Assembly (NCBI RefSeq): GCF_023734775.1
Contig: NZ_AP025732.1
Coordinates: 186,001 to 250,000, forward strand
From: Nostoc cf. commune SO-36
GTDB lineage: Bacteria; Cyanobacteriota; Cyanobacteriia; Cyanobacteriales; Nostocaceae
Direction: 5' to 3'
Length of the DNA stretch: 64,000 bases
Part shown: piece by piece, positions 34,392 to 53,503 of the stretch
How positions within the stretch are numbered: the stretch's first letter is position 1
How the letters are laid out: each line of letters opens with the position of its first letter
Made by a program: the position numbers and the translations under genes
The notes under the pieces: model-generated
What the model saw: only the letters and a program-made list of their open reading frames with translations
Told to the model about the DNA's origin: nothing
The model's database searches: none

Positions 34392-34408
34392 AGTGGAGAT
34401 TTAGTGGA
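34392..34408 (-). promoter_or_regulatory. Shared TCCACT direct repeat (site 1), before the SLH gene
   Basis: On the minus strand, TCCACTAAATCTCCACT: two TCCACT half-sites 11 bp apart, 65-80 bases upstream of the SLH start. It matches five other sites in the window. Confidence 0.55.
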
Positions 34409-34907
34409 GAAGTTCCTCTTACAGCTTAAAATACTACTAAAGACTGACTATACTTATTACTTTAGGTATAGATAACGCAACAATGAAAATATTAAAAATG
34501 TTAATGTTTTAATAAGGGCTTATGTGAATAGAAGAATTCTATAGCAATCTTATTTTAGTGGTGAAAAATATAAATTAGGAAACGAACCGCCAAGGAAAGA
34601 AAAAAGAGATATATAATTTTCACGAATGATTTAGGACTGCTATAAATCTAAGTAATAAAAATATAGCAGAGTTCTCCACGGCTTTTCCACTATTTAGATT
34701 TAATCTAAGTCTCAAACGATAAATTAATGAAATTTTCTTTATCTAACTTTTTTTGCTACCTTAACTATCAGTTATTTTACTATGTACCAATTTTGCGGAT
34801 AAAAATCAAGTGTTAATTGAGTATGAGATACATTTTTTAAAAAATCTTTCTTTGGGTAGTAGAGTTATTGTCTCAAAAAGCAAGATGGTTAGCGGCAGGA
34901 GGGTAGA
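34409..34907. other. AT-rich divergent promoter region
   Basis: Together with 34352-34408 this forms a 556-base spacer between the divergent SLH and DUF389 genes. Apart from the two repeat sites, it is AT-rich with no gene seen. Confidence 0.4.
34675..34691 (+). promoter_or_regulatory. Shared TCCACT direct repeat (site 2), before the DUF389 operon
   Basis: TCCACGGCTTTTCCACT: half-sites 11 bp apart, 217 bases upstream of the DUF389 start. Confidence 0.55.
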
Positions 34908-36191
34908 ATGCGTCAACTCATTATTCAAGTACCACGGGGAAATGGAAAAGCTGTTATCGATATTGCCAAATCTCATAACGGCACGAATCTGGCTCGATTA
35001 GAAGGAAATGCAGAAGAACCGATTGATGTAGTAATTGTTCACGTTTCTAATGGAGAAGTAGGCAAAGTTTTGGAGAAGTTGCAAGACTTGCCCAAAGTAC
35101 AAATTACGCTCATACCAACTGGTGTGATGACTCTGCAACCCCCTACATCGGAAGCGCCGCAACAAGTTATAAATGTGGAAGAACGCAGTCCGATTGAGAT
35201 TTTTCTTTCTGGTTTGCAAAGTGTTGGCTCTTGGCGAGGCTTTCTTGGTTATGCAGCACTGGCAGGCTTTGTAGTCTGGATTGGCTTGTATACCAATACA
35301 GCCTATTTGCTGGTGGCGGCGATGCTGATTGCACCCTTTGCAGGCCCAGCAATGAATACAGCGATCGCTACTGCATGGGGCGATCGCAAACTCTTAGGAC
35401 GGAGTATTCTACGGTATTTTTCTGCCTTAACAGTCACCATTGCCACTACCTGGCTACTTAGCCTAATATTACGGCAAGAAATTCCCACCAGTTTAATGGT
35501 AGATAGCAGTCAGGTTTCAGCAGTGGCAGTGCTTGTGCCATTGGCAGCCGGAGCCGCAGGCGCGCTCAACTTGGTTCAATCAGAACGGAGTAGTTTAGTA
35601 TCTGGGGCAGCGACAGGAATGCTAGTTGCCGCTTCTTTAGCTCCACCTGCGGGAATTGTGGGTATGGCAAGTGCAATTGGCAGATGGGACATGGTAATTT
35701 CGCAGCTATTCGTACTGTTTTTGCAACTATGCGGGATTAATTTTTCAGCAGCGCTCTTGTTCCGAGTATTCGGGCTGTCTGCTCAAGGAACTCGCTATGG
35801 GCGTGGTAAAAAACGGGTATTTTTTTCTACCTTAGTGATCACTGTCATAGCATTGGCAGGTTTACTGACTTGGCAATTTTCTCATTCTCCCAATTTACAA
35901 CGCTCTAGCCTTGCTCAACGTGCTAACGCCCAAGTTCAGAAAACTGTAGAGCAAGTTGGTTTAGCAAAATTAGTCGAGTCGAATGTGCGCTTTACACGAT
36001 CCAATATTGAAGGGCAGGATACCCTGCTATCTGTTGTTTATGTACAGCGTCAACCGGGAGTTACAGCGTCTAGTGAAGAAATACGCGATCGCCTCACCCA
36101 ATCAATTCAAACCCAATTATTGAAACAGGACTTAAATGTGACACCTTTAGTTGATGTCAACGTGCTAGAAACCCCTGCTAATAAACAATAA
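34908..36191 (+). CDS. DUF389 integral membrane protein
   Basis: A 427-residue protein with a cytoplasmic N-terminal part (MRQLIIQVPRGNGKAVIDIAK ... LPKVQITLIPTGVMTLQPP), five or six membrane helices in the DUF389 core (LVAAMLIAPFAGPAMNTAIATAWGD, the family signature), then GAAGALNLVQSERSSLVSGAATGMLVAASLAPPAGIVG, and a soluble C-terminal region. DUF389 proteins are of unknown transport function. ATG 34908 has GGAGGG 4 bases upstream. It is the first gene of a same-strand run with an ion channel, MscS, DUF2254 and a YjdF-like gene. The upstream site 2 may control the run. Confidence 0.88.
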   Translation: MRQLIIQVPRGNGKAVIDIAKSHNGTNLARLEGNAEEPIDVVIVHVSNGEVGKVLEKLQDLPKVQITLIPTGVMTLQPPTSEAPQQVINVEERSPIEIFLSGLQSVGSWRGFLGYAALAGFVVWIGLYTNTAYLLVAAMLIAPFAGPAMNTAIATAWGDRKLLGRSILRYFSALTVTIATTWLLSLILRQEIPTSLMVDSSQVSAVAVLVPLAAGAAGALNLVQSERSSLVSGAATGMLVAASLAPPAGIVGMASAIGRWDMVISQLFVLFLQLCGINFSAALLFRVFGLSAQGTRYGRGKKRVFFSTLVITVIALAGLLTWQFSHSPNLQRSSLAQRANAQVQKTVEQVGLAKLVESNVRFTRSNIEGQDTLLSVVYVQRQPGVTASSEEIRDRLTQSIQTQLLKQDLNVTPLVDVNVLETPANKQ

Positions 36192-36205
36192 AACCAAAAA
36201 TTACG

Positions 36206-36262
36206 AATTACGTTAGCGAAGCGGTAGCGTTCGCGCAGCGTCTCGTAGAGAGGAACGAGCGT
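36206..36262. repeat. REP-like repeat
   Basis: A GC-rich segment (CGTTAGCGAAGCGGTAGCG then GCGCAGCGTCTCGTAGAGAG) between flanking ATTACGAATTA copies. The same core is in the MITE-like elements. Confidence 0.6.
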
Positions 36263-36279
36263 CATTACGAATTAATACT

Positions 36280-37095
36280 ATGAGTAGTTCAAAGCTTTCA
36301 GAAAAACAAGCCCTAGAAAGAGAACGTAATGAAGTCTTGCAACAGTTGGAAGATTGGCTAGAAATTCCAACGCTGGTGCTGGGCTTTGTATGGCTAGCAC
36401 TATTCATCATCGAGATCATCTGGGGATTAAACTCTTTACTGGAAGCCTTTAGCATCACTATTTGGATTATTTTTATATTAGATTTTCTACTTAAACTAGC
36501 GATCGCTCCTCATAAACCTGACTATATCAAAAGCAACTGGCTAACAGCTATTTCTTTGGTGTTACCAGCGCTGCGTACTTTTCGGATTATACGGGTGGTA
36601 CGGATATTAAGAACAGCACGGGTTGTGCGAGGGCTACAACTGTTGCGAGTTATGACTCGTGCTAACCGAGGAATGCGGGTTTTAGGAGCAAGTATTAGCC
36701 GTCGAGGGTTTGGTTATGTTGTGGCGTTAACTGCGATCGTTACTTTAATAGGATCAGCAGGGATGTATGCGTTTGAAAACGAAGTTCCTGTGGAATCAGG
36801 ATTGCATAACTACGGCACTGCTTTATGGTGGACAGCAATGCTAATGACAACGATGGGTTCTGACTATTCGCCCAAAACGCCCGAAGGTCGGGTGCTTTGT
36901 TTTTTCTTAGCGTTATATGCGTTTGCCGTGTTTGGTTATGTCACTGCAACTCTGGCAACGTTTTTTATCGGTCGTGATGCCGATGATGACGAAGCAGAGT
37001 TAGCTGGAGCGAAATCGATTCAAATGCTTCAGAGTGAAATCGCAGCATTGCGCGGGGAAATTCAAGAATTATTGCATCAAAATTCTGAGCGTTGA
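36280..37095 (+). CDS. Voltage-gated ion channel family protein
   Basis: A 271-residue six-helix channel. S4-like basic helix: LRTFRIIRVVRILRTARVVRG, with an Arg every third residue. S5 and S6 flank a pore loop ALWWTAMLMTTMGSDYSPKTPEGRVL. The pore reads TTMGSDY where K+ channels have TVGYGD, so the selectivity filter is degenerate and the ion cannot be assumed to be potassium. The C-terminus has a short coiled coil (IQMLQSEIAALRGEIQELLHQ), probably for tetramerisation. ATG 36280; no strong Shine-Dalgarno, because the REP-like insertion lies just upstream. It is in the DUF389-to-YjdF run. Confidence 0.85.
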   Translation: MSSSKLSEKQALERERNEVLQQLEDWLEIPTLVLGFVWLALFIIEIIWGLNSLLEAFSITIWIIFILDFLLKLAIAPHKPDYIKSNWLTAISLVLPALRTFRIIRVVRILRTARVVRGLQLLRVMTRANRGMRVLGASISRRGFGYVVALTAIVTLIGSAGMYAFENEVPVESGLHNYGTALWWTAMLMTTMGSDYSPKTPEGRVLCFFLALYAFAVFGYVTATLATFFIGRDADDDEAELAGAKSIQMLQSEIAALRGEIQELLHQNSER

Positions 37096-37127
37096 CGTTA
37101 GCAAAAATTACTTAGTGAGGAAAGTTT

Positions 37128-38135
37128 ATGAATGCAGAAATCTCGACAGCTTGGGATAAGATTCAAAGCATGATAAATGGTTTCATAGCTTTGCTACCAA
37201 ACATTGTCTTAGGATTAATTGTCTTCATCTTATTTTTGTTTATTGCTAGCAGAATTAAAATACTGGTCAAGCGGTTAACTCGTAATCGTCGTTCTGCGCG
37301 AAATCTGGGACTAGTACTAGGAAGGTTAGCACAAGGGCTAACAATTTTGATTGGGTTGTTTATCGCCCTTTCTATTGTGATTCCTACATTTAGAGCCGGT
37401 GATTTGATACAACTTTTGGGAATTAGTGGTGTTGCAATTGGTTTTGCTTTCCGCGATATTTTGCAAAACTTCTTAGCTGGAATTTTAATTCTGCTGACTG
37501 AACCTTTTCAAATTGATGACCAAATTGTTTTTAAAGGCTTTGAAGGAACGGTCGAAAATATTGAAACACGCGCAACAACAATCAGAACTTATGACGGTCG
37601 GCGGATTGTCATTCCGAACTCGGAATTGTTTACTAATTCGGTAACTGTAAACACTGCCTTTGAAAATCGGCGATTAGAATACGATGTCGGCATTGGCTAT
37701 GGCGATGACATTGACCATGCCAAGCAGTTAATGCTAGACGCAATGCTTAGTGTAAATGAAGTTTTAAAAGATCCGGTTCCTGATGTACTAGTAATGGAAC
37801 TTGCCGAAAGCACTGTTAACATCCGTGTGCGTTGGTGGGTTCATCCACCACGACGCGCAGATAATCTTATTTCGCGGGATAAAGTGATTACTGCAATTAA
37901 GAAAACGCTCGTTGCAAACGGCATTGATTTGCCCTTCCCAACTCAACAAATTCTGTTCCACGACCAGACCGAAGAGACAGATGGAAACCGTTCCCGTCAG
38001 CGTGAAGGTTGGCCATCTGGTAAAGGTGAAGTACCGAAGCCTCGCCGCATCAGCGATTCACTCAGGTTACTTGCTCAAGCACACTCCTCACAAGATAACA
38101 ACGGTAAAGTAGATTCTCAAACCAACGAACAATGA
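37128..38135 (+). CDS. Small-conductance mechanosensitive channel (MscS family)
   Basis: A 335-residue MscS-type channel: three N-terminal hydrophobic segments, with the pore helix and hinge in LLGISGVAIGFAFRDILQNFLAGILILLTEPFQIDD, the conserved beta domain GTVENIETRATTIRTYDGRRIVIPNSELFTNSV, and an alpha/beta C-terminal domain. It releases osmolytes on hypo-osmotic shock. The last 60 residues are polar and likely disordered (TEETDGNRSRQREGWPSGK). ATG 37128 has GAGGAAAG upstream. Its stop overlaps the start of the DUF2254 gene by four bases (ATGA), so they are translationally coupled. Confidence 0.93.
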   Translation: MNAEISTAWDKIQSMINGFIALLPNIVLGLIVFILFLFIASRIKILVKRLTRNRRSARNLGLVLGRLAQGLTILIGLFIALSIVIPTFRAGDLIQLLGISGVAIGFAFRDILQNFLAGILILLTEPFQIDDQIVFKGFEGTVENIETRATTIRTYDGRRIVIPNSELFTNSVTVNTAFENRRLEYDVGIGYGDDIDHAKQLMLDAMLSVNEVLKDPVPDVLVMELAESTVNIRVRWWVHPPRRADNLISRDKVITAIKKTLVANGIDLPFPTQQILFHDQTEETDGNRSRQREGWPSGKGEVPKPRRISDSLRLLAQAHSSQDNNGKVDSQTNEQ

Positions 38136-39481
38136 GAAATGTCAAGATAAGCAAACTGTGGGATCAACTCCACTCAAGTTACTGGTTCATACCGGCGGTT
38201 ATGGCGGTGTTAGCTATTGCTTTAGCTTTCACAATGCTTTCTCTTGACCGCACAGGCAAAGTAGACATTGATTATTGGTGGGTTTACGGTGGTGGAGCAG
38301 ATGGAGCGCGATCGCTGTTAGGATCGGTTGCAGGTTCGATGATTAGCGTTGCTGCTACAGCTTTTTCAATTACAATTGTGGCACTTCAGTTGGCTGCTTC
38401 CAATTTCGGGCCGCGACTTCTGCGTAACTTTATGCAGGATACAGGTAATCAAATTGTACTAGGCACATTTATTGGTACGTTCATCTACTGCTTGTTCGTA
38501 CTGCGGACAATTCAGGGAGAGGGAGATGGATACGAACAGTATGTGCCACAACTTTCGGTTACAGTCGGCACTTTACTGGCAATTATTAGCATTGGTGTAT
38601 TAATTTATTTTATCCATCATGCTTCAACAATAATTCAGGCATCTTACGTAATCCAAAATGTTAGTGAGGATTTACATTCAGCAATTAAGCGGCTATTTCC
38701 AGAAAAAATTGGGCATGGTGAACCAGAACATAGACAAGGAGTTGAAGAAATTCCCATGTCTTTTGAGGAGGAAGCTTTACCAATTCGATCGAATGGAACT
38801 GGTTATTTACAAGCAATTGATAATGGAGAATTGATGGAAATTGCTTGTAAACATAATTTGCTAGTACGCCTTAAGGTTAGACCGGGGAAATTTCTAATTC
38901 AAGGTAGCGATTTAGCCTTGGTTTTTCCTGGGAAAAAAGTAAATAAAAAACTTACCAAACAAATTAATGATGCTTTTATTTTGGGCAAAGAACGTACAGA
39001 ACAACAGGATATAGAGTTTCCAATCGATCAATTAGTAGAAATTGCTCTGCGTGCCATTTCCCCTGGAATAAACGATCCATTTACTGCAATTCGCTGTATT
39101 GACCGAATTAGCGCAGGGCTGTGCCACTTAGTTCAAAGAGATTTCCCTTCGCCCTACCGCTATGATAAAAATAACAAATTGCGCTTCATTGCCAAAGGAG
39201 TCGATTTTCAAGGATTGGTTGAGCGTGCTTTTAACCAAATTCGGCAGTATGGAAAGTCGGATGCAGGAGTAACTATTCGTTTGTTAGAAGCTATAGCTGC
39301 AATTGCTACTTACACCAATAATTCTAAATATCAAGCAAGCCTGCGCCATCATGCTGACATGATTTTACAAGATAGCCGTGAAGGACTATCACAAGAACAA
39401 GACCGCAAAGATGTAGAAGAGAGTTATTATCAGGTCATTAAAAATTTAAATAATGATGACAATAATAAGGATTGGGATTAA
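38132..39481 (+). CDS. DUF2254 membrane protein
   Basis: A 449-residue protein with four N-terminal membrane helices (SSYWFIPAVMAVLAIALAF; GSVAGSMISVAATAFSITIVALQLAASNFGPRLLRNFM; GTFIGTFIYCLFVLRT; LSVTVGTLLAIISIGVLIYFI) and a large soluble domain (ERTEQQDIEFPIDQLVEIALRAISPGINDPFTAIRCIDRIS). These are the DUF2254 hallmarks; function is unknown. It overlaps the MscS gene by four bases, so the two proteins probably act together in membrane or osmotic stress. Confidence 0.9.
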   Translation: MRNVKISKLWDQLHSSYWFIPAVMAVLAIALAFTMLSLDRTGKVDIDYWWVYGGGADGARSLLGSVAGSMISVAATAFSITIVALQLAASNFGPRLLRNFMQDTGNQIVLGTFIGTFIYCLFVLRTIQGEGDGYEQYVPQLSVTVGTLLAIISIGVLIYFIHHASTIIQASYVIQNVSEDLHSAIKRLFPEKIGHGEPEHRQGVEEIPMSFEEEALPIRSNGTGYLQAIDNGELMEIACKHNLLVRLKVRPGKFLIQGSDLALVFPGKKVNKKLTKQINDAFILGKERTEQQDIEFPIDQLVEIALRAISPGINDPFTAIRCIDRISAGLCHLVQRDFPSPYRYDKNNKLRFIAKGVDFQGLVERAFNQIRQYGKSDAGVTIRLLEAIAAIATYTNNSKYQASLRHHADMILQDSREGLSQEQDRKDVEESYYQVIKNLNNDDNNKDWD

Positions 39482-39525
39482 TCAGAATATTGGCGTTTTA
39501 GATTAATATTTTTGAGGTAATAATT

Positions 39526-40151
39526 ATGAAAAGTCTGAACTGGAAAGGTTATCGAATTATCGCATGGATAGGACAGGCTGTACTAACAATTTTTGTCATA
39601 GTCGCAGCAGTTCAAGGTAAGTGGTCTAATGCTTTGGGTCTTGCATTGTTTCTTGTTTTATCCTTTGTGTTTGTCATCCGAGATGATAAATTACCCACTT
39701 TATTTGATTTTTTGTTTGTCTTAGCTGCATTGCTCAATGCTACTGGTTGGGTATGGAATTTATTTGGTATGCCAGGCCCCTATGACGAGATTGTTCATGC
39801 TTATACGACTTCTGCAATTACCCTAGCACTTAGTTTTTTAGTCTATGGTTCAATGTTGAATATATTTCGGAATCATACAGTTTTGTATTTAGTGACAATT
39901 ACTAGTTTTGGAATTGCTATTGGTGCTTTGTGGGAAGTCACAGAATGGTCTGCTGGTAAATTCTTAATACCCAAGTAATTGAAAGCTTGGATGACACCAT
40001 TATTGATTTAGTTATGGACACTCTCGGTGCTGGATTAGCAGCTTTAATTAGCCTTTGGGCGTTACGAAATTGGACTAATCGTCATACAGATGCAACTAAT
40101 GGACAAACTGAGACAATAGATAGCTACTTTCTTGTAAACCAGAAGATTTAG
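39526..40151 (+). pseudogene. YjdF-like (DUF2238-type) membrane protein, one frameshift
   Basis: ATG 39526 starts MKSLNWKGYRIIAWIGQ, then four or five helices with YDEIVHAYTTSAITLALSFLVYG and GALWEVTEWSAGKF. TAA at 39976 follows after a T lost near 39967; one base added continues NTQVIESLDDTIIDLVMDTLGAGLAALISLWALRNW to TAG 40151. The acidic/His motifs (D-E-x-x-H; E-x-x-E) and DTIIDLVMDTLGA fit the YjdF-type family of unknown function. It follows DUF2254 by 44 bases and is probably the last gene of that run. Confidence 0.72.
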
Positions 40152-40278
40152 AACCTTGAATTTGATTTATATCATTGGCGAAAGTAGGAGTTGCAAAAAG
40201 CGTTGCTGCCAACAAAAGCGTGGTTGAAACAATAGGTAATTTCTGCCATCGATAACTATAATTAGATTTCCTGATCAC
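40096..40278 (-). CDS. Possible small exported protein
   Basis: A 60-residue frame on the minus strand from GTG 40278 with a convincing signal peptide (QKLPIVSTTLLLAATLFATPTFA, cleavage before ND) but only about 25 mature residues. It overlaps the 3' end of the YjdF-like gene antisense. The Shine-Dalgarno is poorly placed. It may be the intact start of a longer decayed gene. The rest of the spacer to 40645 holds a partial TIR-like piece (TCTGACTCCTG at 40432) and nothing else. Confidence 0.4.
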   Translation of the reverse strand: MIRKSNYSYRWQKLPIVSTTLLLAATLFATPTFANDINQIQGSKSSGLQESSYLLSQFVH

Positions 40279-40645
40279 ATCCTTGCAATATTACTAATTA
40301 CTATCTACAGCAGTTTGCAACTCAGTGAAGTAACAAATTAGATTTGAATGACAAAGATCAATGCTGCTATAACCTTATAAGGGTATCTTTGCCATTCCGA
40401 TAGTGTTGCGTAGCAAAAGCTATTCTAACTTCTGACTCCTGTAAGCCGTGGCCTTGTAGTAGGCTATTCTGCTGTATATATTTGCATCTAACTATAGATA
40501 ATCATAATTTTCATAAAATAGCATCTGTTTTAAGAAATAGAAAATACTCCTCCAAGGGATATAAATTTAGTAATTTATATCGGATAGAGCGCAAGCAAGT
40601 ATCCAGATAACACATTAGAAAATGAGTTATTGTAGTAAAAATTCA

Positions 40646-41680
40646 TTATCGATGATTATTTTCCTGCCAGTTATTAAGTACATCCTCTACCAAAACTTCT
40701 TTTACCCAAATTTGTAATACAATTACTAAAGGTATAGCAAGAAATACACCTAAAAAACCAAAAAAGCTCCCAAAAAAGACTACTGCTACTAAAGTCACTG
40801 CTGGCAAAAGAGATGCTTGGCTTTTCATAACTAAAGGCATTATAACGAAACTTTCAACTTGCTGAATTACGAAATACAAAGCTATAACAGCGGCGATTTT
40901 CCAAGGTTCTCCACTTAATGCTAGCAGTGCAGGCGGAATCACACTCAAGGTTGGCCCAAAATTTGGGATAAATTCTAAAAATCCTGCCAAAATAGCATTA
41001 ACTAATGGCAATGGTATTCCTAAAATCAACAGCCCAATATAGCTCAATGTTGCAATGAGCAGCATAGTCAGGAGCGTGCCTTTTATCCAGCCAGTCAACG
41101 AGACTGCACACTTATTTAGAATGTCATCAACTCGTCGACGATAAAAAGCAGGGAATAGCATTATAAATCCCTGTCGATAGGGCGAGGGATTGACTAATAA
41201 CATGATGGTAAGAGCTACAAAAAGCAGCAAAGCTAAAATAATAGAAAGCGAGTTACTGACCAAGCTAAAAAAGTTGTTTATTAACCGATTTAACCAATCT
41301 TGTAAACCTTGAGTCAGATACCTAAGCCCCTGAATATTTTCTAATAGTTGGTCAGGAATTACATTTTGTAACCAGTTATTCCACGATCGCAACCGTTCTA
41401 GTCCTATAGGCATAATATTAGCAAATTGTTGCAATTGGTCAATAAAACGTGGCACAATCAGTACAAAAAAACCGACCAAAATGACCAATAAAAGAACAAC
41501 TGTTATAGCAACTGCAATTCCTCGCTTGATACGAAATCTTTGAAAAAAACTCACTAGTTGATTTAGGACTGTAGCTAAAACTACTGCTGCAAATACCACC
41601 AAAAGTATTTGCCGAATTTGCCACAAAATGTAAAGAGATATAACAAGAGCGAGAAACCCGATTAATTGTCCGAATCGCAC
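40646..41680 (-). CDS. AI-2E family transporter (PerM-type permease)
   Basis: A 344-residue, eight-helix membrane protein of the AI-2 exporter/PerM family. Signature segments: RFGQLIGFLALVISLYILWQI, the conserved ILAGFLEFIPNFGPTLSVIPPALLAL, and the C-terminal PLVMKSQASLLPAVTLVAVVFFGSFFGFLGVFLAIPLVIVLQIWVKEV. Many cyanobacterial members have no proven link to AI-2; some act in Na+/H+ exchange or general efflux. ATG 41680. It stands alone. Confidence 0.9.
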   Translation of the reverse strand: MRFGQLIGFLALVISLYILWQIRQILLVVFAAVVLATVLNQLVSFFQRFRIKRGIAVAITVVLLLVILVGFFVLIVPRFIDQLQQFANIMPIGLERLRSWNNWLQNVIPDQLLENIQGLRYLTQGLQDWLNRLINNFFSLVSNSLSIILALLLFVALTIMLLVNPSPYRQGFIMLFPAFYRRRVDDILNKCAVSLTGWIKGTLLTMLLIATLSYIGLLILGIPLPLVNAILAGFLEFIPNFGPTLSVIPPALLALSGEPWKIAAVIALYFVIQQVESFVIMPLVMKSQASLLPAVTLVAVVFFGSFFGFLGVFLAIPLVIVLQIWVKEVLVEDVLNNWQENNHR

Positions 41681-41878
41681 AAGCAGCCCCCACTTTTTGT
41701 TATTTACAGCTATTTTTCTGAGTTTAATTACTTCAACATAGCTGTATCGCTATATTTAAAAAGCCACTAAAAGACTGATTTTTCAAGACCAACGATATAT
41801 CTATCTGGGGACAGAATTTAGGTGTTTTATAAGAGACTAATCTGAAATAAGCAACCCTTGAAGGCTGTACTCATAAAA

Positions 41879-42040: not shown

Positions 42041-42100
42041 TACAGTAGGAACCTCAGCAGCTAAGACTTATCTAAGTAGTAGGGTTAGTAAATTTGCATC

Positions 42101-42616
42101 ATGTATAAACCGATTAAGTTCATTTGTTGGGCATTGATAGGCATTCTATTTTTTTCGATGTCCGGCTTGCCTAGCTTGGCTAGAGATGTAAATGTACCCA
42201 AATTCCCGCTTTCAGAACCTCAACAGCAGCAACCAACCGAACCAAAGCAGCCTGTAATCACATCTCCTACTGCACCGGGATTAAGTAATCCCCAGGAATT
42301 TGAAGGCTTTGTAGACAAAATCATCAATGAAGAAATATCAAAGTCTCATGTTCCTGGTGCAGCCATTTTTGTGGTTAAAGATGGGAAACTATTTTTTGCT
42401 AAGGGCTATGGTTACGCGAACGTAAAAAAAAACATACCAGTTGTCATAGATAAACCTTTGTTTCGCGTAGCTTCCCTTTCCAAGTTATTTACAGCTACAG
42501 CAGCAATGCAGTTGTACAACGGGGAAAGCTTGATTTGGATGCTGATATTAATAAATACAGCCGTTGAATATGGGGCGGAGTACATTTCTCCAGCCACCCC
42601 CGCCGCCTTTAACTGA
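42101..42616 (+). pseudogene. Beta-lactamase-fold serine hydrolase, truncated and frameshifted
   Basis: ATG 42101 encodes a signal peptide (FICWALIGILFFSMSGLPSLA), a Pro/Gln linker, and the start of a class C beta-lactamase-like domain (VDKIINEEISKSHVPGAAIFVVKDGKLFFAKGYGYAN) with the active-site SxxK (RVASLSKLFTATAAMQL). After YNGE the frame is shifted: one base earlier the DNA reads GKLDLDADINKY, the expected continuation, and then stops. The remaining 250 or more residues of such proteins (YxN and HxG motifs) are absent. It cannot be a working hydrolase. Confidence 0.75.
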
Positions 42617-42687
42617 TGATTTGGCTGTTGTTGTGGGTTATTCATATATTTGGTTATTTTATTTACTAAAGCTATGTTTCTAACTAG

Positions 42688-44520
42688 TTATCTTCGTTTG
42701 ACACAGTTCAATATACGGGTGATTAGTTGTGAGTTCTTAGCAGTTTTGCTCACACAATCATCGGCTCTGATCGCAAATAGTTGCTCAACAATATCTGCTG
42801 ATAAATTATCAACCAGAAACAGTACTGGTAAAAATTTCCAGTACGGATCGTTACGTACTACCTGACAAAGTTCAATGCCATTGATATGAGGCATTTCCAC
42901 ATCTAAAATTAGCAAATCTGGAGAAAATTCTGTCAGAGTATCCCAGAAGTAGCGTGGATCTTCAAGAGTTTTTAGAGTAAATCCTAAAGCTTCTAAAAAT
43001 TGTTGTATAACAATTAATGTCTATGGATCATCGTCTACAACCATGATTCTCGCTTTAGTAATACGAGTTTGCTGTAAAACATGGGCTACTGACTCCAAAA
43101 TTTCGTTAGGAGGCATGGATTTTTGTAAAAAAGCACGTCCGCCAGATCGTGCAACTTCTAGGCGTAAGCGAAGCCCGCCGCAGGCATCACTAAAATTATC
43201 TCGCTCTGTAAAAACTAACACAGGTATTTGTGGCGTTGGCGTTTCGCCTACCGTAGGTGTTTGCTGAGATAATTCTCTTATTAATTTCAAGCTGTCTTTC
43301 TCAATATCAAGATCGAGTAGCACCACATCGGGATTTAAAGATGGGATTATACTTCTGGCGGCGGCGATATTAGTAGCAATCTTAACTTGTAGTTCCTGAT
43401 TCTCAGCCTCCTTTATCAATCCCTCAACTACTTGTTGATCATTACTAATTACTAATAGTAGATTTTGGGTTTGTTCAACCGGGGTTTTTTCTAGCTCTCG
43501 TTGCAACTCCATCAAGAGCTTATCTAAATAAAAACATTTAGCTTGGCTAATAAATTTTTGAGTTTGAAATAAATCTTCTATCTCGTTGGCTAATAACGAA
43601 CCTTTTGGAAAGCCAAAGCTACCCAAGGAACCAGCTAGCTTGTGAGCTTCTTGCTCTGCTTTTTGCCGCACTTGAGTATCAAGTGTACCTTTTCTTAAAG
43701 CATCAGCTGCTAGTTTCAATACTGCAATGCGCGAACCAACCTTAGCTTTGAAATTTTCCCGCTCTTGAGCAATGGCTGTTAGTAGAATTTGCTGCTGTTT
43801 TAAATCTGTTTCCGGCTCATGTATCTGACAACTTTGCTCATCATCTAGAGCTTTTAAACGATAACCCATTCCATAGACAGTTTCTATAAAATCATAGTTA
43901 GCACCTGCGGCTTTTAGCTTTTGCCGTAAACTTTTAATATGAGATTTAATCGTATTTTCTTCAGGTGGATCTTTTTCAGCACTCCAAAGTTGATCTACAA
44001 TGGCACTCCGGCTAAAGATGCGCTGGTTGTTGCGTAAAAAAAGGTCTAAAAGGCTAAATTCTTTTGCTGTTAAATTTAGTGTAATATCTGCATAAGTCAC
44101 TTCACAAGTACTAGGATCGAGACGCAAGGCTCCCCATTCCAAAACAGGAGGTAAAGAAGTATTTCCTCGACGTAATAAAGCACGAATCCGAGCTGATAAC
44201 TCTTGAAAATCAAATGGTTTGACTACATAATCATCTGCTCCGGCATCTAAACCGATAACTTTATCAGTTTTAGTGTCTTTTGCCGTTAAAAGCAGAATCA
44301 GCATTTGATAACCTGACTGCCGTAATTGCCGACAAAGACTTATGCCATCTAGTTTTGGCAGAACAATATCTAACACAATCAGGTCATAGTTACAGACATT
44401 AACCAATTCCCAACCGGCTTCACCATCAGCAGCAATATCAACCACATAATTTTGTTTGGTAAGATATCTTGCTACAGCTTGAGCAAGCAAATCATCGTCT
44501 TCAACCAACAGAATTCTCAT
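42688..44520 (-). pseudogene. Multidomain response regulator (REC-wHTH-HPt-REC-REC) with an in-frame TAG
   Basis: From ATG 44520 (MRILLVEDDD): receiver with Asp51 (VLDIVLPKLDG), winged-helix DNA-binding domain (LTAKEFSLLDLFLRNNQRIF ... YGMGYRLKAL, 125-230), an HPt domain with phosphotransfer His (EAHKLAGSLGSFGF), a second receiver (VVLLDLDIEKDS) and the beginning of a third (IMVVDDDP). TAG 43021-43023 stops it there, but the same frame continues (TLIVIQQFLEALGFTLKTLEDP ... LLILDVEMPHINGIELC) to 42688, so a Gln codon probably mutated. The intact product ending at 43021 would have 499 residues. The second receiver contains repeat-derived insertions (TPTVGETPTP; GGLRLRLEVARSGG). Confidence 0.85.
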
Positions 44521-45032
44521 GAAAATGTTTGCTTGTAGAAGCAACCCTGAGCGCTGTAATCAAATTTATATAACTTAGGTTATGCCCTTTTCAGTTTTAT
44601 ATGGCATCTATCAAAGGCAAGGTTTAAGCAACAGATTCGCTCGGTCTCACCTATTTTGATAAAACTTTCTACTTGAGGCTATTACAAGTCAGGACAGTAG
44701 AAAACCCGGTAGTAATGTAGCATTAACAGAGCGATACTGATCCAGTCTAGAGCGAAAACATGACGAACTTGCGATAGTTGAGCAGTTATTTACCTCAAGA
44801 GTTAAGTAAACCGAATTAATTACACAATGTCATTGCGATCGCTCGCAATGACAATAAATATTTTTGTTCATCTAATTACCAATAGCTATGGTATGATTAC
44901 GTAGGATGTCGTTTGACTAACAGCCGCACCAGTGATACATCATCGATTTTGTTAAAGTGCGATCGCGTCTCAGTCAGCAATTCAAAAAAACATCTATCGC
45001 AATCATTTTCCAAATGGCTATTACAATCTTTT
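44521..45032. other. Intergenic region with a possible PP2C-like C-terminal remnant
   Basis: On the minus strand, 44917-45048, a start-less frame reads CFFELLTETRSHFNKIDDVSLVRLLVKRHPT before a stop, similar to the D-D-x-S-L end of PP2C/SpoIIE-type phosphatases. It overlaps the end of the porin-like gene. The rest of the spacer is AT-rich with HIP1 sites. Confidence 0.35.
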
Positions 45033-45665
45033 TTACAACCCAGTAAAGTTGTAACCTACTCCGATCATCAGCCCGACATCCGTTTCATCTAAAAATGCCG
45101 CATTCACGCCTGCTGTTGCCGTGAGGTTAGTATTTAAAGGAACATCTACGCCACCAGATAAAAGCAGGCCAACGTCTGCATCATCACTAGTTTCAATCGC
45201 TATGCCAGCCCCAACGTATGGTGCTATAGCGAATGTATCTTCAAAAGCATCTGCTGTCCGAAAGTTAAAGTCATAGGTGAGAGGAAGCAAAATAACGGGG
45301 TCGTCCTCAATGGCCACAGATGGACGTACAGATAAGGTACGCGTCAGCCCAATTTTGCTGATTACCATAAAGCTACCTTCACCTATAGCTGAATCACCGC
45401 CTAAACCAATGTTGCCAGCAACTCCAATATAGCTGGAGCCACCACGGGTAGTTCGACCTGGAGCAACATCTACTTGCGCCACCTCAGCAGAAGTTTTAGA
45501 AGCAGGTTGTGTTGCTTGGGGAATCAAATCGGCTGCTGTTGTTGAAATTTTACCGGGAGTCGATGTCGATACAGTTTGTGCTTGAGCAGATAATCCACTT
45601 CCAAGCATTGTGATTGTGGAGAAAATAAACAACGCAGAAAATCGTTGTAACCATGTACTATTCAT
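45033..45665 (-). CDS. Outer-membrane beta-barrel protein (porin-like)
   Basis: A 210-residue exported protein: signal peptide (FSALFIFSTITMLGSGLSAQAQ), a Thr/Ala-rich linker, then alternating hydrophobic strands rich in Gly and aromatic residues (SYIGVAGNIGLGG; FAIAPYVGAGIAIETSDD; TATAGVNAAFLDETDVGLMIGVGYNFTGL), ending near an aromatic, as in small outer-membrane barrels. No named family recognised. ATG 45665. The TCCAC direct repeat (site 3) lies about 180 bases upstream. Confidence 0.75.
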   Translation of the reverse strand: MNSTWLQRFSALFIFSTITMLGSGLSAQAQTVSTSTPGKISTTAADLIPQATQPASKTSAEVAQVDVAPGRTTRGGSSYIGVAGNIGLGGDSAIGEGSFMVISKIGLTRTLSVRPSVAIEDDPVILLPLTYDFNFRTADAFEDTFAIAPYVGAGIAIETSDDADVGLLLSGGVDVPLNTNLTATAGVNAAFLDETDVGLMIGVGYNFTGL

Positions 45666-45841
45666 TTTTCAAATTTCCAAATAATTTTGCATGAAGGAAT
45701 CAGGCATTGAAAAGCAATCTAATATGCAACCAAATTGCTGTTACTTTCCTAACTGATTCAAGCTGATGTCAGCCAACTTTATTAACTGTATGGATAACAC
45801 CAGTTCTCGCTTGAATTACACTTTTGAAGTTATCTATGAAA

Positions 45842-45858
45842 AGTGGAAAACTTGTGGA
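45842..45858 (-). promoter_or_regulatory. Shared TCCACT direct repeat (site 3), before the porin-like gene
   Basis: On the minus strand TCCACAAGTTTTCCACT: half-sites 11 bp apart, about 180 bases upstream of ATG 45665 and just beyond the 3' end of the hybrid kinase gene. Confidence 0.55.
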
Positions 45859-45882
45859 TTTGAGCAATATTTACAAAATTGC

Positions 45883-48015
45883 TCAGAGTTTACCAGACAT
45901 TTTACCCAGGCTGGCAACAACGGCAATTAATTCAGCTGCTCTAACTGGTTTCGCAACATGTAGCTGAAACCCTGCTGCTAATGCCTCCTTGTAATCTTCT
46001 ACCCTGGCATATCCCGTCAGTGCAAGAGCAGGAATTCGCCCGCCTTGTTCTGCTTCAATTTCTCTGATTTTACGCATCAGCGCGTAGCCATCCTCGTCTG
46101 GCATCCCAATGTCGCTGATTAACACATCTGGATGTAATTCTTCTAGTGCTTTAAGTGCCTGTCTTGTGGAGCTAAAAGTACTAACTTTCGCTCCACACTC
46201 TTCGAGTACTGCGGTAATCCACTGCCGCACATCCGCCTCGTCATCTACAACCAGCACTTGCAAGTTGGTTAAGAGGTTGGGGGATGAGGGGGATGAGGGA
46301 GATGGGGGAGATGAGGCGGAAAGACTTTCTTCTCTGCTTTCTTCTAAAATGGGCAACTTGACTGTAAATGTTGCACCTTGCCCTATTCCTTGGCTTTGGG
46401 CTTGGATTGTGCCACCATGTAGTTCTACCACATGACGGGCGATCGCTAGCCCTAAACCTAATCCTTTATCTGACCGAGTATGACTGCTATCTGCTTGGCA
46501 AAAGCGCTCAAATACATGAGGTAGAAAGTCAGCACTGATACCTTTACCCGTATCACTTACTTGAATTTGAACATAGCTAGGAATTGAGGGTTGGGAAAAC
46601 TCTTCCCCACTCCCTACTCCCGTTCGGCTACGCTCACGGCAAGCCCACTCCCTACTCCCTATTTCCTTTGACAACCGCACCTTAATTCGTCCATCATTGG
46701 GTGTAAATTTAATTGCATTGGTGAGTAGATTTAACACAACTTGTTGCAAGCGATCTGAATCACCCGAAATTTTTTCTATTGAAGTATCAAGTATAGTTTC
46801 AATTTGAATACTCTTAGCATCTGCCAGTGATTGTACAACCTCGATCGCGTCTGTAATTACTCCTACTAAATCTACCAAATCAATAGAGAGTGAAAGTTCT
46901 CCTCTAACAATCCGCGAAATATCAAGTAAGTCTTCAATAAGTTGCATTTGCAAATTAGCATTGCGTTCGATTATCTCCAATGCAAGAGTTACTTTAGCTT
47001 CATCTAGCGCACCCGTTTGCAACATTCCCGCCCAACCGATAATTGCAGTCATGGGGGTACGTAATTCATGAGAAACTATTGCTAAAAATTCGTCTTTGGA
47101 ACGGTTTGCGGCTTCTGCTGCACTTTGTGCCGCTTCGCTAACGGCACGTGCAGCTTGTTCTCGTAGCAACAGTTGTTCTTTTTCTTCTTCAACTTGTTTG
47201 CGCTCAGTAATATCTTGCATAATTTTAGAGAATCCGCGCAGATTTCCATTTTCATCTCGTAAAGGTGTGATTACACAATGCGCCCAGAAAAATGTACCAT
47301 CCTTACGGAGATGCCAACGATTTTCTTTAAAAAAACCTTCAGTTACGGCTTTTGTTAATACTTGTTGTGGTTGTCCACGCTCAATTGCTTCTGGTGAAAA
47401 AATTCGCTCAAAAGGTTGACCAATAATTTCTGCTTCTTGATAGCCTAAAATACGTTCGGCTCCAATATTCCAACTGGTAAAGTTACCGTTTGGATCTAAC
47501 ATAAAAATTGCGTAATTAGTTACTCCTTCTATTAGCAATCGATAACGTTCTTCGCTTTGGCGCAGACTGTCTTGAATTTGACGTAAACACTCGTAATTAT
47601 CCTGGGCGGCTCGCGCGTTTTTTTGAGCTTGCGATCGCGCCTGGCGCAGTGCGGAGTTAAGTAAGCTAATCAACAATGCTACTAACACAAACTGAAGCAA
47701 CCCCACCGCACTGAACCCACTAACAGCCAGAGAATAAAAAGGGGGCAAGAGGAAGTAGGCGCAGACTATAGCAGACAAAAAAGTTGCCAACAGCCCTGGG
47801 TTTAAGCCACCATACCAGGAACTAACCATGACAGCAGCTAAAAACAGTGGGTAAATAGAATTCAGCCTGTGTAGCTGCCATAGAAGCAGTGTCAACAGTA
47901 AAGCTAGTAAAACCGTTAAGAATGCAATGCTGTAGCGTTGTAGTTGCGAGAATCGCCGTTCCCGGAGCGTTCCGTAGGGAAGGCGGGGCAAAGCCCATCG
48001 TGTCAATCTCCACAT
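45883..48015 (-). CDS. Hybrid sensor histidine kinase / response regulator
   Basis: A 710-residue hybrid kinase: an N-terminal membrane-integral sensor of four helices (residues about 30-120, KdpD/DUF4118-like), a coiled coil, a PAS domain (150-275), HisKA with phospho-acceptor His316 (AIVSHELRTPMTAIIGW), HATPase_c (NLLTNAIKFTPNDG; DTGKGI; GLGLGLAIARHVV) and a C-terminal receiver (VLVVDDEADVRQW; DVLISDIGMPDEDG). Two insertions look repeat-derived: REWACRERSRTGVGSGEEF between the N and G1 boxes, and SSPPSPSSPSSPN before the receiver. ATG 48015. The phosphorelay target is unknown; the CheY-like gene at 48199 is divergent and near. Confidence 0.9.
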   Translation of the reverse strand: MWRLTRWALPRLPYGTLRERRFSQLQRYSIAFLTVLLALLLTLLLWQLHRLNSIYPLFLAAVMVSSWYGGLNPGLLATFLSAIVCAYFLLPPFYSLAVSGFSAVGLLQFVLVALLISLLNSALRQARSQAQKNARAAQDNYECLRQIQDSLRQSEERYRLLIEGVTNYAIFMLDPNGNFTSWNIGAERILGYQEAEIIGQPFERIFSPEAIERGQPQQVLTKAVTEGFFKENRWHLRKDGTFFWAHCVITPLRDENGNLRGFSKIMQDITERKQVEEEKEQLLLREQAARAVSEAAQSAAEAANRSKDEFLAIVSHELRTPMTAIIGWAGMLQTGALDEAKVTLALEIIERNANLQMQLIEDLLDISRIVRGELSLSIDLVDLVGVITDAIEVVQSLADAKSIQIETILDTSIEKISGDSDRLQQVVLNLLTNAIKFTPNDGRIKVRLSKEIGSREWACRERSRTGVGSGEEFSQPSIPSYVQIQVSDTGKGISADFLPHVFERFCQADSSHTRSDKGLGLGLAIARHVVELHGGTIQAQSQGIGQGATFTVKLPILEESREESLSASSPPSPSSPSSPNLLTNLQVLVVDDEADVRQWITAVLEECGAKVSTFSSTRQALKALEELHPDVLISDIGMPDEDGYALMRKIREIEAEQGGRIPALALTGYARVEDYKEALAAGFQLHVAKPVRAAELIAVVASLGKMSGKL

Positions 48016-48070
48016 TTTCTATTACTTTTGGTCTATTACTTCTGGTTATGCCATCTGTTTATTAAACTTC

Positions 48071-48087
48071 TACTCTAGTTTTCCACT
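48071..48087 (+). promoter_or_regulatory. Shared direct repeat (site 4), before the CheY-like gene
   Basis: TACTCTAGTTTTCCACT: the second half-site is exact, the first fits TNCNCT, 11 bp apart, 112 bases upstream of the start. Confidence 0.5.
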
Positions 48088-48198
48088 TTCAAGTTTTACC
48101 ATTAAAAATTAATCTTAAGAGGATGGTAGTTTTAAACAATGCCCCTCATTACATTGGAAGAATTAAAGCACTAAGTAATAATAATTTAAAACAGGAAG

Positions 48199-48579
48199 AT
48201 GATAACGATGACCTCTAAGCAAATCTTAGTTATTGATGATGATGATGACATCCGTCAATTGATTCAGACTTGTCTAGAAATAATGGGGGGCTGGGAGGTG
48301 TTGACTGCTACTTCAGGTAATCAAGGATTATCCTTAGCTCAGTCATCTCAACCCGATGCCATACTTTTGGACGTAATGATGCCTGACATGGATGGTTTGA
48401 CAACTTTTCAAAAACTACAGGCTAATCAAACAACTAAACATATACCTGTAATTTTGCTTACAGCTAGAGGACGCAGTAATAACGAACATCTATTCAGTAA
48501 TCTAGGTATCAAAGGCATAATTAGTAAACCATTTAATCCTCAGAAACTAGCTGTTCAAGTAGCAGCAGCCTTGAGCTAA
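48199..48579 (+). CDS. CheY-like response regulator
   Basis: A 126-residue stand-alone receiver: acidic pocket VIDDDDDIRQ, phospho-acceptor Asp in AILLDVMMPDMDG, Thr in VILLTARG and Lys in ISKPFNPQKL. No output domain, so it acts by protein contact. ATG 48199 (MITMTSKQIL) or ATG 48208; the AGGAAG sequence sits too close to the first, so 48208 is possible. It is divergent from the hybrid kinase and has its own repeat site (site 4). Confidence 0.9.
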   Translation: MITMTSKQILVIDDDDDIRQLIQTCLEIMGGWEVLTATSGNQGLSLAQSSQPDAILLDVMMPDMDGLTTFQKLQANQTTKHIPVILLTARGRSNNEHLFSNLGIKGIISKPFNPQKLAVQVAAALS

Positions 48580-48971
48580 AGTATATTACAAAATCTGGTG
48601 TTTCCAGTTTAGCTATTCCTAAATTATTGATGGGAATTTAGGTGACAGAGATAGGATTACTGTAGTCTCTCCACTTTAGGATAGATTTGCTTAAAAAAAA
48701 GTCTATCTATAGTTTTGGTAGTCTCTTTCTTAAGTCGTAGTTTTTTCCGAAAATACATATCCTCCACTAGTTTTCCACTTTTACTCTCTAAATTTATAAC
48801 TAAATCAATAAATATTAGTTCTGAAGTCAAGATAAATTCTTTTCAGTAAAGCAACTAATACTTCAAGAAGTAAATACATTAATTGGTGAGGTGAGTTTTA
48901 TCATATAGATTGAAATCAAACTCTAATTTACTAGATTTACTTAAAATATCTACTTAGGGAGTAAAGTATAT
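48580..48971. other. AT-rich upstream region of the DUF3611 gene
   Basis: About 390 bases without a gene. It holds site 5 of the shared direct repeat and AT-rich DNA; nothing else recognised. Confidence 0.4.
48763..48779 (+). promoter_or_regulatory. Shared TCCACT direct repeat (site 5), before the DUF3611 gene
   Basis: TCCACTAGTTTTCCACT: two exact half-sites 11 bp apart, 193 bases upstream of ATG 48972. This is the cleanest copy. Confidence 0.6.
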
Positions 48972-49535
48972 ATGATAAATAATTTAGAATCACTTTCACA
49001 TCCACCAAGCAAACAAAAATTTGCTGCTACATTGCGTTTAGTAAGTCGAATTAGTTTCTGGGTGCAATTAGTACTTGGTGGTATTTCTGGCATTGCTGTA
49101 TTGTTGGCGTGTTTTAGCCGTAACGTTACGACAAGCAGTTCAGGTATAGGCTTTGGCATATTTTTGGCTATTGTTGGTATTTTATTGCTGTGCTTTCGAG
49201 TCTATTGGGCTTTCCGTTATCGAAAAATGGCTAAACTTTTACAAACGCCAAATTCTGACAACCATCCCAAGAAGGAAGACGTAATTCAAAATTTGCGAAT
49301 CGGATTGCTCGTGAGTTTGCTAGGGTTATTAATAGCTTTCATTGCTTCGGAAGTGACCGTTATAATCGTATTGAGTAAAGCAGTAGCACAACCTCAAGGT
49401 GTCGCATTGTATCAACCAGAAAATGTAATTCGTTCCTTAGATATTTTTGTAATTTTAGCAAATATTAATGTGATTGGCGCTCACTTTTTTGGAGGGATTA
49501 CTTCTCTTGGTCTACTCTATTGGTTAGAAGAGTAA
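48972..49535 (+). CDS. DUF3611 family membrane protein
   Basis: A 187-residue protein with four helices: RISFWVQLVLGGISGIAVLLACFSR, GFGIFLAIVGILLLCFRVYWAFRYRKM, LRIGLLVSLLGLLIAFIASEVTVIIVLSKAV and the C-terminal DIFVILANINVIGAHFFGGITSLGLLYWL. The length and the NINVIGAHFFG signature fit DUF3611, found in cyanobacteria and chloroplasts. Function unknown. ATG 48972 with AGGGAG upstream. The repeat site 5 suggests stress co-regulation with its neighbours. Confidence 0.88.
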   Translation: MINNLESLSHPPSKQKFAATLRLVSRISFWVQLVLGGISGIAVLLACFSRNVTTSSSGIGFGIFLAIVGILLLCFRVYWAFRYRKMAKLLQTPNSDNHPKKEDVIQNLRIGLLVSLLGLLIAFIASEVTVIIVLSKAVAQPQGVALYQPENVIRSLDIFVILANINVIGAHFFGGITSLGLLYWLEE

Positions 49536-49625
49536 TAGGTGCAGTATTGATTTGATTTTGCTAGCTATTACTATAGAAGTACTAACCTATATCTAAAGTA
49601 TTATTTGCTAAATGTATTACAATTC

Positions 49626-49642
49626 TGCTCTACTTTTCCACC
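49626..49642 (+). promoter_or_regulatory. Shared direct repeat (site 6), before the exported protein gene
   Basis: TGCTCTACTTTTCCACC: half-sites fit TNCNCT and TCCACC, 11 bp apart, 197 bases upstream of ATG 49839. The 300-base spacer holds nothing else recognised. Confidence 0.5.
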
Positions 49643-53463: not shown

Positions 53464-53503
53464 TTAATCATAAGATTAAACAGTTTTTACAGGAGGAAAA
53501 AAC

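What the first reader, a model, noticed from the sequence alone, without database searches (positions are those of the whole stretch)
34392..49642. Six genes share an 11-bp-spaced direct repeat (TNCNCT-N5-TCCAC[T/C]) in their upstream regions
Sites 34392-34408 (minus), 34675-34691, 45842-45858 (minus), 48071-48087, 48763-48779 and 49626-49642 all carry a TCCAC(T/C) half-site preceded by a TNCNCT-type half-site exactly 11 bp upstream, often with T-runs between. They precede the SLH protein, the DUF389/channel/MscS/DUF2254 run, the porin-like protein, the CheY-like regulator, DUF3611 and an exported protein, and all are in intergenic DNA in the orientation of the gene. Eleven-bp spacing puts both half-sites on one face of the helix, as for tandem response-regulator sites. 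I do not recognise it as a named operator. The neighbouring genes look like an envelope/osmotic stress set, so this may be the operator of an undescribed local regulon, perhaps under the orphan regulators at 28388 or 42688.
Basis: partly seen in the sequence, partly recalled or inferred. Interest (0 to 1): 0.82.

Follow-up and report, generated by a model that had tools for sequence, protein, structure and literature searches.

The report
Pho-box-like operator in cyanobacterial envelope genes
Six promoters in this cyanobacterial genome share a double DNA landing site that recurs, beside one particular pair of signalling genes, in dozens of other cyanobacteria; it looks like the switch of a so far undescribed programme for cell-envelope genes, though binding by the regulator has not been shown.

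Summary
In detail: six exact 11-bp-period repeats lie where stated (mean 0.53 in 100 shuffles, largest 3). A second fixed element was missed: TAnnnT begins 9 bp downstream in 5 of 6 sites, TA in all six. Two 8-bp boxes, a 3-bp linker and 10 bp to TAN3T is the published E. coli pho-box geometry (PMC1906773, passage), with other letters: TTCTCCAC-nAG-TTTTCCAC-N10-TAnnnT.

In 36 stretches the site precedes 17 of 23 PRC, 14 of 19 SLH, 12 of 17 CheY and 8 of 13 exported-protein genes, against 29 of 375 other ORFs (stretches chosen around clusters). It tracks one response regulator: 39 of 40 genomes of the window's family with the 43021-44544 orthologue have at least 3 sites, against 14 of 177 without, eight of these with a TCCCC sister motif. 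A hybrid kinase (45883-48015) lies close by, so the regulator is no orphan.

Best reading: activator box and promoter of a phosphorelay regulon for envelope genes. Binding, activation and signal are inferred. A sister regulator with one changed base-contact residue goes with TCCCC sites. Not found in print in the searches named.

The parts
34377..34408 (-). site 1: 17-mer 34392-34408 plus N9 plus TAACTA (34377-34382), upstream of the SLH gene
34675..34706 (+). site 2: 17-mer 34675-34691 plus N9 plus TAATCT (34701-34706), upstream of the DUF389 / ion channel / MscS / DUF2254 run
45827..45858 (-). site 3: 17-mer 45842-45858 plus N9 plus TAACTT (45827-45832), upstream of 45033-45665
48071..48102 (+). 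site 4: 17-mer 48071-48087 plus N9 plus TACCAT (48097-48102), upstream of the CheY-like gene
48763..48794 (+). site 5: 17-mer 48763-48779 plus N9 plus TAAATT (48789-48794), upstream of the DUF3611 gene
49626..49657 (+). site 6: 17-mer 49626-49642 plus N9 plus TAACCT (49652-49657), upstream of an exported protein
43021..44544 (-). proposed regulator: OmpR/PhoB-type response regulator, REC - Trans_reg_C - Hpt - REC; a further C-terminal REC piece continues in another frame at 42712-43035
45883..48015 (-). proposed sensor: hybrid histidine kinase, DUF4118 - PAS - HisKA - HATPase - REC
28388..29089 (+). second OmpR/PhoB-type response regulator (REC - Trans_reg_C), paralogue with the same recognition-helix core KSHIKSLR; possible co-regulator
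33413..34351 (-). SLH-domain protein, predicted target (an in-frame ATG lies at about 34327)
34908..36191 (+). DUF389 membrane protein, predicted first gene of a target operon
36280..39481 (+). ion channel (36280-37095), MscS channel (37128-38135), DUF2254 protein (38132-39481), predicted operon members
45033..45665 (-).
48199..48579 (+). CheY-like single receiver domain, predicted target, possible feedback component
48972..49535 (+). DUF3611 protein, predicted target
49839..50489 (+). exported protein of a family with members in 12 other genomes among the loci
50669..54010 (+). genes following the exported protein: two related lipoprotein-like ORFs (50669-51301, 51544-52341), M48 peptidase (52561-53463) and PRC-like protein (53504-54010); homologues stand beside sites in other genomes

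Best explanation
The element is a PhoB-type activator box joined to a -10 element. Two 8-bp boxes (TTCTCCAC and TTTTCCAC) 11 bp apart bind, head to tail on one face of the helix, a dimer of the OmpR/PhoB-type response regulator 43021-44544; the dimer occupies the place of a -35 box and brings RNA polymerase to the TAnnnT hexamer 10 bp further on. The regulator is charged by the nearby hybrid kinase 45883-48015 through a relay (kinase His, kinase REC, the Hpt fused to the regulator, the regulator's first REC). The output is a clustered set of envelope, channel and proteolysis genes (SLH, PRC/DUF2382, DUF389-channel-MscS-DUF2254, DUF3611, exported proteins, and in relatives HtrA- and M48-type peptidases) and a CheY-like protein that may drain phosphate as feedback. 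Shown here: the composite motif, its recurrence before the same gene families, its placement, and its association with this regulator and kinase. Inferred: binding, activation, the direction of the relay, the role of CheY, and a signal such as envelope or water stress.
For: Composite structure: 93 sites chosen by second half plus -10 alone; 90 of 93 have TNCNC at period 11, 0-5 at the other periods from 5 to 19 except 32 at 14 (TTC before TCC). 98 sites chosen by the 17-mer alone; 90 of 98 have TAnnnT at offset 9, at most 12 at any other offset from 3 to 21. Placement: 96 of 98 outside ORFs; 146 of 147 in the 113 stretches of the genome-contig scan. Gene choice, misses included: a site (2 mismatches allowed) within 500 bp upstream on the gene's strand for 17 of 23 PRC, 14 of 19 SLH, 12 of 17 CheY, 8 of 13 exported, 7 of 11 DUF3611, 3 of 4 DUF389, 3 of 4 HtrA-type genes, against 29 of 375 other ORFs; 19 of 19 kinase genes have a site in the same interval pointing away from them. 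Flanks of these sites are unrelated (0.27-0.32 identity upstream, 0.31-0.39 downstream). Co-occurrence: order sample, 13 of 13 genomes with the full-length kinase (1107-1311 bits; next family 739) have 3 or more sites, 3 of 230 others; the pattern came from the window only and five of the 13 (G017, G119, G135, G148, G175) were not in the kinase alignment. Family: regulator orthologue 39 of 40 against 14 of 177 (Fisher 5e-30, kinship ignored). Domains. Geometry of the E. coli pho box: PMC1906773, passage; PhoB boxes overlap the -35: PMC3348028, passage. Recognition helix: KS[H/Y]IKSLR in 31 of 33 regulator loci; Y or W replaces the S in regulators linked to TCCCC sites, at the position of PhoB R201, a base-contacting residue by PMC3264566, passage (the residue matching is mine).
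Against: No binding or expression data. The 36 stretches were chosen around motif clusters or kinase genes, so placement, offset and gene-choice counts are not from a random sample, and the window is one of them; genomes are related, so p-values overstate. The high identity of the 17-mers themselves (0.85-0.93) is partly built in, because they were picked as exact pattern matches. Exceptions: G254 keeps four clustered sites but has neither regulator orthologue (best 438 bits) nor kinase; G359 keeps one site without them; G423 and G317 have the regulator but no full-length kinase; G322 has the pair but only 2 sites. G317's 22 sites are mostly a variant. Kinase and regulator are not always neighbours: of 38 family genomes with both, 30 within 5.5 kb, three at 9-31 kb (G275, G304, G401), G405 about 660 kb apart, four on different contigs. 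Seven of 60 sites lie farther than 50 kb from the kinase. 5 of 17 CheY, 5 of 19 SLH and 6 of 23 PRC genes lack a site. L366 has G for S in the helix and L329's print was cut. In the CheY promoters of G043 and G175 the -10 is shifted by one. The window's own regulator frame is broken near its end, a sequencing error or partial decay. No site precedes kinase (0 of 19) or larger regulator genes (0 of 18) on their own strand, so direct autoregulation is not seen.
Confidence: 0.76

Rival explanations
1. The sites are read mainly by the 28388-type response regulator, or by both regulators together.
For: Its recognition-helix core KSHIKSLR is the same as that of the 43021 regulator. In G254 and G359, which lack the 43021 orthologue, a 28388-type gene with the same core lies about 19 and 6 kb from TCCAC sites; it is also about 10 kb from sites in G256 and G258.
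Against: In the 20 stretches (8 genomes) the only matches to 28388 were the 43021 orthologues themselves, in 7 stretches, at 52-56% identity, while sites are dense there; the 43021 orthologue goes with the sites in 39 of 40 genomes. A genome-wide count for 28388 orthologues was not made.
Confidence: 0.13
2. The regulator represses: it covers the -35 region and blocks polymerase rather than recruiting it.
For: The boxes lie over the -35 position in the six window sites and in the 90 of 98 sites with the fixed -10.
Against: With a 17-bp spacer the bases at the -35 place read ACGAGT in the column counts and match TTGACA at 2 of 6, so the promoter should be weak without help; the spacing to the -10 is the one published for PhoB sites.
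Confidence: 0.05
3. The motif is the promoter of an alternative sigma factor (a -35 and -10 pair), and the direct repeat is incidental.
For: Two boxes at constant distance before genes of a stress-like set.
Against: The first box keeps the 11-bp period in 90 of 93 sites selected without it; a TAnnnT -10 is of housekeeping type; a response regulator tracks the sites. Sigma genes were not searched for.
Confidence: 0.04
4. The sites are copies of a repeat or mobile element, or chance similarity, without regulatory role.
For: Several copies lie close together in one region.
Against: Flanks are unrelated (0.27-0.32 identity upstream), and the same gene families follow the site in different genera far more often than other ORFs do.
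Confidence: 0.02

Closest known systems
E. coli pho box / PhoB
   Same: two 8-bp direct repeats with a 3-bp linker, 10 bp before TAN3T/A (PMC1906773, passage), overlapping the -35 (PMC3348028, passage); the regulator has the same receiver plus winged-helix make-up
   Different: box sequence TTYTCCAC, linker nAG; the regulator carries a fused Hpt and further receivers and scores below the PhoB cut-off (204.7 against 296.2); no phosphate genes among the identified targets
SphR Pho box of cyanobacteria
   Same: 8-bp tandem repeats with a 3-bp linker in cyanobacteria (PMC1906773, passage)
   Different: SphR consensus is CTTAACCT in at least three repeats; here TCCAC and two repeats
Cpx envelope stress system (CpxA/CpxR), targets and box by recall
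   Same: two-component control of periplasmic peptidases and envelope proteins, tandem half-sites
   Different: regulator is far below the CpxR model (139.2 against 341); the sensor is a hybrid kinase with DUF4118; box differs
RppA of cyanobacteria
   Same: best NCBIfam model for both window regulators (233.3 and 218 bits)
   Different: both are below the 250-bit cut-off; that RppA has no Hpt is recalled
TCCCC sister motif (found here)
   Same: same 11-bp period and -10 distance, CheY-like and DUF3592 genes downstream, a linked regulator of about 778 aa in four genomes
   Different: half-site TCCCC; helix residue Y or W instead of S; no orthologue of this kinase at E 1e-230 in those genomes

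Membership tests
PhoB-type (OmpR/PhoB) operator | two direct repeats with an 11-bp period | tested here: met
   90 of 93 sites selected without the first half
PhoB-type (OmpR/PhoB) operator | repeats end 10 bp before a TAN3T -10 hexamer | tested here: met
   TAnnnT at offset 9 after the 17-mer (10 bp after the 8-bp box) in 90 of 98 sites, 5 of 6 in the window
PhoB-type (OmpR/PhoB) operator | A/T-rich 3-bp linker as in E. coli | tested here: not met
   linker is mostly nAG or nAC (column counts)
PhoB-type (OmpR/PhoB) operator | a linked response regulator with receiver and winged-helix domain | tested here: met
   Response_reg and Trans_reg_C; co-occurrence 39 of 40
PhoB-type (OmpR/PhoB) operator | the regulator binds the box and activates | not testable with these tools
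   no binding or expression data
SphR/PhoB phosphate regulon | CTTAACCT boxes, PhoB equivalog score, phosphate genes downstream | tested here: not met
   box sequence; PhoB model 204.7 below 296.2; identified downstream families
RppA regulator | score above the NCBIfam NF041734 cut-off | tested here: not met
   233.3 and 218 against 250
CpxR envelope stress regulator | score above the NCBIfam CpxR cut-off | tested here: not met
   139.2 against 341
Envelope stress response (works like) | periplasmic or membrane peptidases among the targets | tested here: inconclusive
   a site lies before 3 of 4 HtrA-type and 3 of 7 M48 genes in the stretches; in the window M48 is only a distal gene
KdpD/KdpE system | KdpD sensor with its own N-terminal domains | tested here: not met
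   only DUF4118 is shared; Pfam lists no KdpD domain and the kinase is a hybrid

The most novel reading that the evidence does not exclude
Cyanobacteria carry a family of paralogous Hpt-bearing PhoB-type regulators, each with its own Pho-box-like operator of fixed geometry, in which one residue of the recognition helix (the PhoB R201 position) sets the half-site: Ser reads TCCAC, Tyr or Trp reads TCCCC. The TCCAC branch runs a patchily distributed island of envelope genes that serves survival on land.
Probability: 0.35. Interest if true: 0.75.

Novelty: new member of a known kind. Interest (0 to 1): 0.62.

Why it matters
It gives a complete, testable regulon (operator, promoter, regulator, sensor, targets) to a set of genes many of which are only 'domains of unknown function', in cyanobacteria whose record titles include desert, lichen and soil strains. 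The sister TCCCC system makes operator specificity of PhoB-type regulators testable by a single residue. The motif can be used to look for further target genes in other genomes of the order.

Tried and rejected
Wrong-spacing search: N4 instead of N3 by my mistake; kept as a negative control; mis-spaced pattern, no use. A loose 3-mismatch search in the window was not significant.

Literature: OrrA of Nostoc flagelliforme was considered as the regulator; in PMC13131328 a search for six terms found no 'binding motif', 'direct repeat', 'consensus' or 'Hpt' and three passages on OmpR, and nothing ties OrrA to these sites. Searches for the gene set and for related regulators gave nothing relevant in the papers listed (only the top 10-15 of each were seen) and no paper at all. 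The search for motif letters found 64 papers with at least one of four strings; the ten listed are unrelated and hold neither 16-mer; the other 54 were not seen.

Considered and rejected: KdpDE, SphR, RppA, CpxR membership, alternative sigma promoter, repeat element. The kinase alone as marker was replaced by the regulator, because G423 and G317 have the regulator without the full kinase. The four hits of the genome-contig scan outside the usual groups (L137 Saprospiraceae, L142 SZAS-4, L146 Obscuribacterales, L202 Paludibacter) are intergenic but were not followed; by my estimate (no call) about two chance hits are expected in that collection. No structure prediction was made; the helix argument rests on sequence only. 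A phylum sample of 339 genomes found the regulator (E 1e-155) only in G000 and G017, which says little, since few genomes of the rich families were drawn.


Full report
Observation. TNCNCN6TCCACY matches exactly these six places in 64 kb; 100 dinucleotide shuffles average 0.53 with a largest count of 3. Aligning the sites downstream showed an unreported feature: TAnnnT begins exactly 9 bp after the 17-mer in five sites, and TAACTA stands there in the sixth. TAnnnT occurs at 72 of 1866 local positions, so five of six at one offset is far beyond chance even allowing for the offsets looked at.

Own genome. The composite pattern TNCNCTN2TTTTCCACTN9TAACNT with up to 3 mismatches gives 12 hits in 7,408,262 bases: the six window sites and six others, not studied; its reversed control gives 11, so 3-mismatch hits elsewhere are at background. 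All five hits with 2 or fewer mismatches lie in the window; the control has none at that level. The pattern derives from the sites, so this shows only that close copies are confined to 15 kb.

Relatives. In 243 genomes of the order the same pattern (2 mismatches) hits 92; most have one or two scattered hits. Sixteen have three or more (the reversed control reaches three or four in four genomes), and in many of the sixteen the hits are packed into some tens of kilobases. Fetched clusters show the window's gene order in outline: SLH gene, response regulator, hybrid kinase, site, CheY, DUF3611, site, PRC, exported protein. Pfam places SLH-fasciclin, a serine hydrolase of the beta-lactamase family, trypsin-PDZ, DUF3267, M48, DUF1206, PRC/DUF2382 and Yip1 proteins among the neighbours.

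Which regulator. A profile of nine kinases (A1) finds the full-length kinase (1107-1311 bits) in 13 of 243 order genomes, plus a cut-short second copy in G197 (1062 bits); the next hits, of 739 bits or less, mostly lack the DUF4118 part. All 13 have three or more sites; of 230 others three do (G049, G129, G152), with hits on different contigs. In 217 genomes of the window's family the kinase (E at most 1e-230) is in 39, of which 38 have three or more sites. A profile of eight regulators (A3) gives orthologues of 542 bits or more in 40 genomes, with 506 bits next (E limit 1e-145); 39 of 40 have three or more sites (G322 has two), against 14 of 177 without (Fisher 5e-30, kinship ignored). Of those 14, eight (G338, G351, G354, G359, G360, G362, G384, G439) have chiefly TCCCC sites, G342 is 72% complete and has the kinase, G246, G280, G201 and G329 have scattered poor matches, and G254 is a true exception with four clustered TCCAC sites. 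G423 and G317 have the regulator without a full-length kinase. Of 38 family genomes with both genes, 30 have them within 5.5 kb, three at 9-31 kb (G275, G304, G401), one about 660 kb apart (G405) and four on different contigs (G322, G343, G344, G402) (positions).

Structure of the motif. In 36 stretches (the window and 35 fetched; 693,019 bases, 73.4% coding; chosen around motif clusters or kinase genes) 98 exact 17-mers occur, 96 outside ORFs of 100 aa or more; 90 of 98 have TAnnnT at offset 9, at most 12 at any other offset. Selecting by the second half and -10 only gives 93 sites, 90 with TNCNC at period 11 (57 with TCCAC), and shows the unit TTCTCCAC-nAG-TTTTCCAC.

Targets, misses included. 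With 2 mismatches allowed, a site lies within 500 bp upstream on the gene's strand for 17 of 23 PRC, 14 of 19 SLH, 12 of 17 CheY, 8 of 13 exported-protein, 7 of 11 DUF3611, 3 of 4 DUF389, 3 of 4 HtrA-type, 3 of 7 M48, 4 of 7 serine hydrolase and 6 of 27 lipoprotein-like genes, against 29 of 375 other ORFs of 100 aa or more; for 0 of 19 kinases and 0 of 18 larger regulators; 19 of 19 kinases have a site there that points away from them. In the promoters picked by an exact 17-mer (12 CheY, 10 SLH, 12 PRC, 7 exported) the flanks are at 0.27-0.32 identity upstream and 0.31-0.39 downstream; the 0.85-0.93 of the 17-mer itself is partly built in by the selection.

Range. An exact scan of the GTDB collection returned 113 stretches with 147 sites, 146 outside ORFs. 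The record titles are nearly all cyanobacteria, among them Nostoc, Calothrix, Scytonema, Fischerella, Chlorogloeopsis, Gloeocapsopsis and Aliterella; four are two Bacteroidota and two records (SZAS-4, Obscuribacterales) that I take, by recall, for non-photosynthetic relatives.

Mechanism. E. coli PhoB boxes are 8-bp repeats with a 3-bp linker, 10 bp before TAN3T/A (PMC1906773, passage), overlap the -35 (PMC3348028, passage), and models support strict spacing to the core promoter (PMC10294691, passage). The element here has this geometry with other letters, and the bases at the -35 place do not resemble TTGACA. I infer an activator that stands in for the -35. The regulator has receiver, winged helix and Hpt; the kinase is a hybrid with a receiver: a His-Asp-His-Asp relay within two proteins is the simplest reading. 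A CheY-like protein is among the most regularly marked targets and may be a feedback sink. The signal is unknown; the target families suggest envelope or osmotic stress.

The second regulator and the sister motif. The 28388 regulator has the same helix core KSHIKSLR. In G359 and G254, which lack the main regulator, 28388-type genes with that core lie about 6 and 19 kb from the remaining TCCAC sites, so it may read the same boxes. Four regulators of about 778 aa linked to TCCCC sites, 3-25 kb away (G254, G439, G351, G360), have KSHIK[YW]LR, and the corresponding gene in G354, G359 and G384 has Y. By my matching, helped by the alignment to regX3, the changed residue is PhoB R201, one of four base-contacting residues (PMC3264566, passage). 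This is correlation in few lineages. The own genome has one close TCCCC match, at C1:541208.

These are inferences.

Print. The papers listed (top of each list only), the empty, and the passages read show no description of this motif or regulon; the library lacks most subscription papers, so this is not proof.

Noticed in passing
G354, G351, G338, G360, G439, G254 loci L308-L311, L378-L384; own genome G000:C1:541208 (L388): Sister motif TCCCCTAGTTTTCCCCGATT-N6-TAATCT of the same geometry, before CheY-like, DUF3592, cupin and unknown genes, with a response regulator of about 778 aa 3-25 kb away in four genomes.
   Followed up: partly
window 42712-43035 (-): The last receiver domain of the regulator 43021-44544 lies in another frame; most orthologues in the family have open frames of about 580-680 aa. 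Sequencing error or decay.
   Followed up: partly
window 50669-51473: The lipoprotein-like gene 50669-51301 is also continued in another frame (matches at 50693-51262 and 51201-51470).
   Followed up: partly
window 42101-42616: Short ORF matching only the first 71 positions of the beta-lactamase/serine hydrolase family; a member of about 685 aa follows a site in relatives (L073, L084, L090).
   Followed up: no
L073 14901-15647: A protein with a weak eCIS_core domain match lies directly behind a relaxed site in G161.
   Followed up: no
G317: 22 sites, mostly of a variant like TACCCAAGTTTTGCACAATTG, spread over many contigs in a genome with the regulator but without the full-length kinase.
   Followed up: no
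G022, G049: A further related motif TTCCCTAGTTTTTCACTTTT in one other family of the order.
   Followed up: no
window 5475-7257: Two adjacent related ORFs of a family that also stands beside sites in other genomes; a homologue, L075:4193-5113, matches calcineurin-like phosphoesterases.
   Followed up: no
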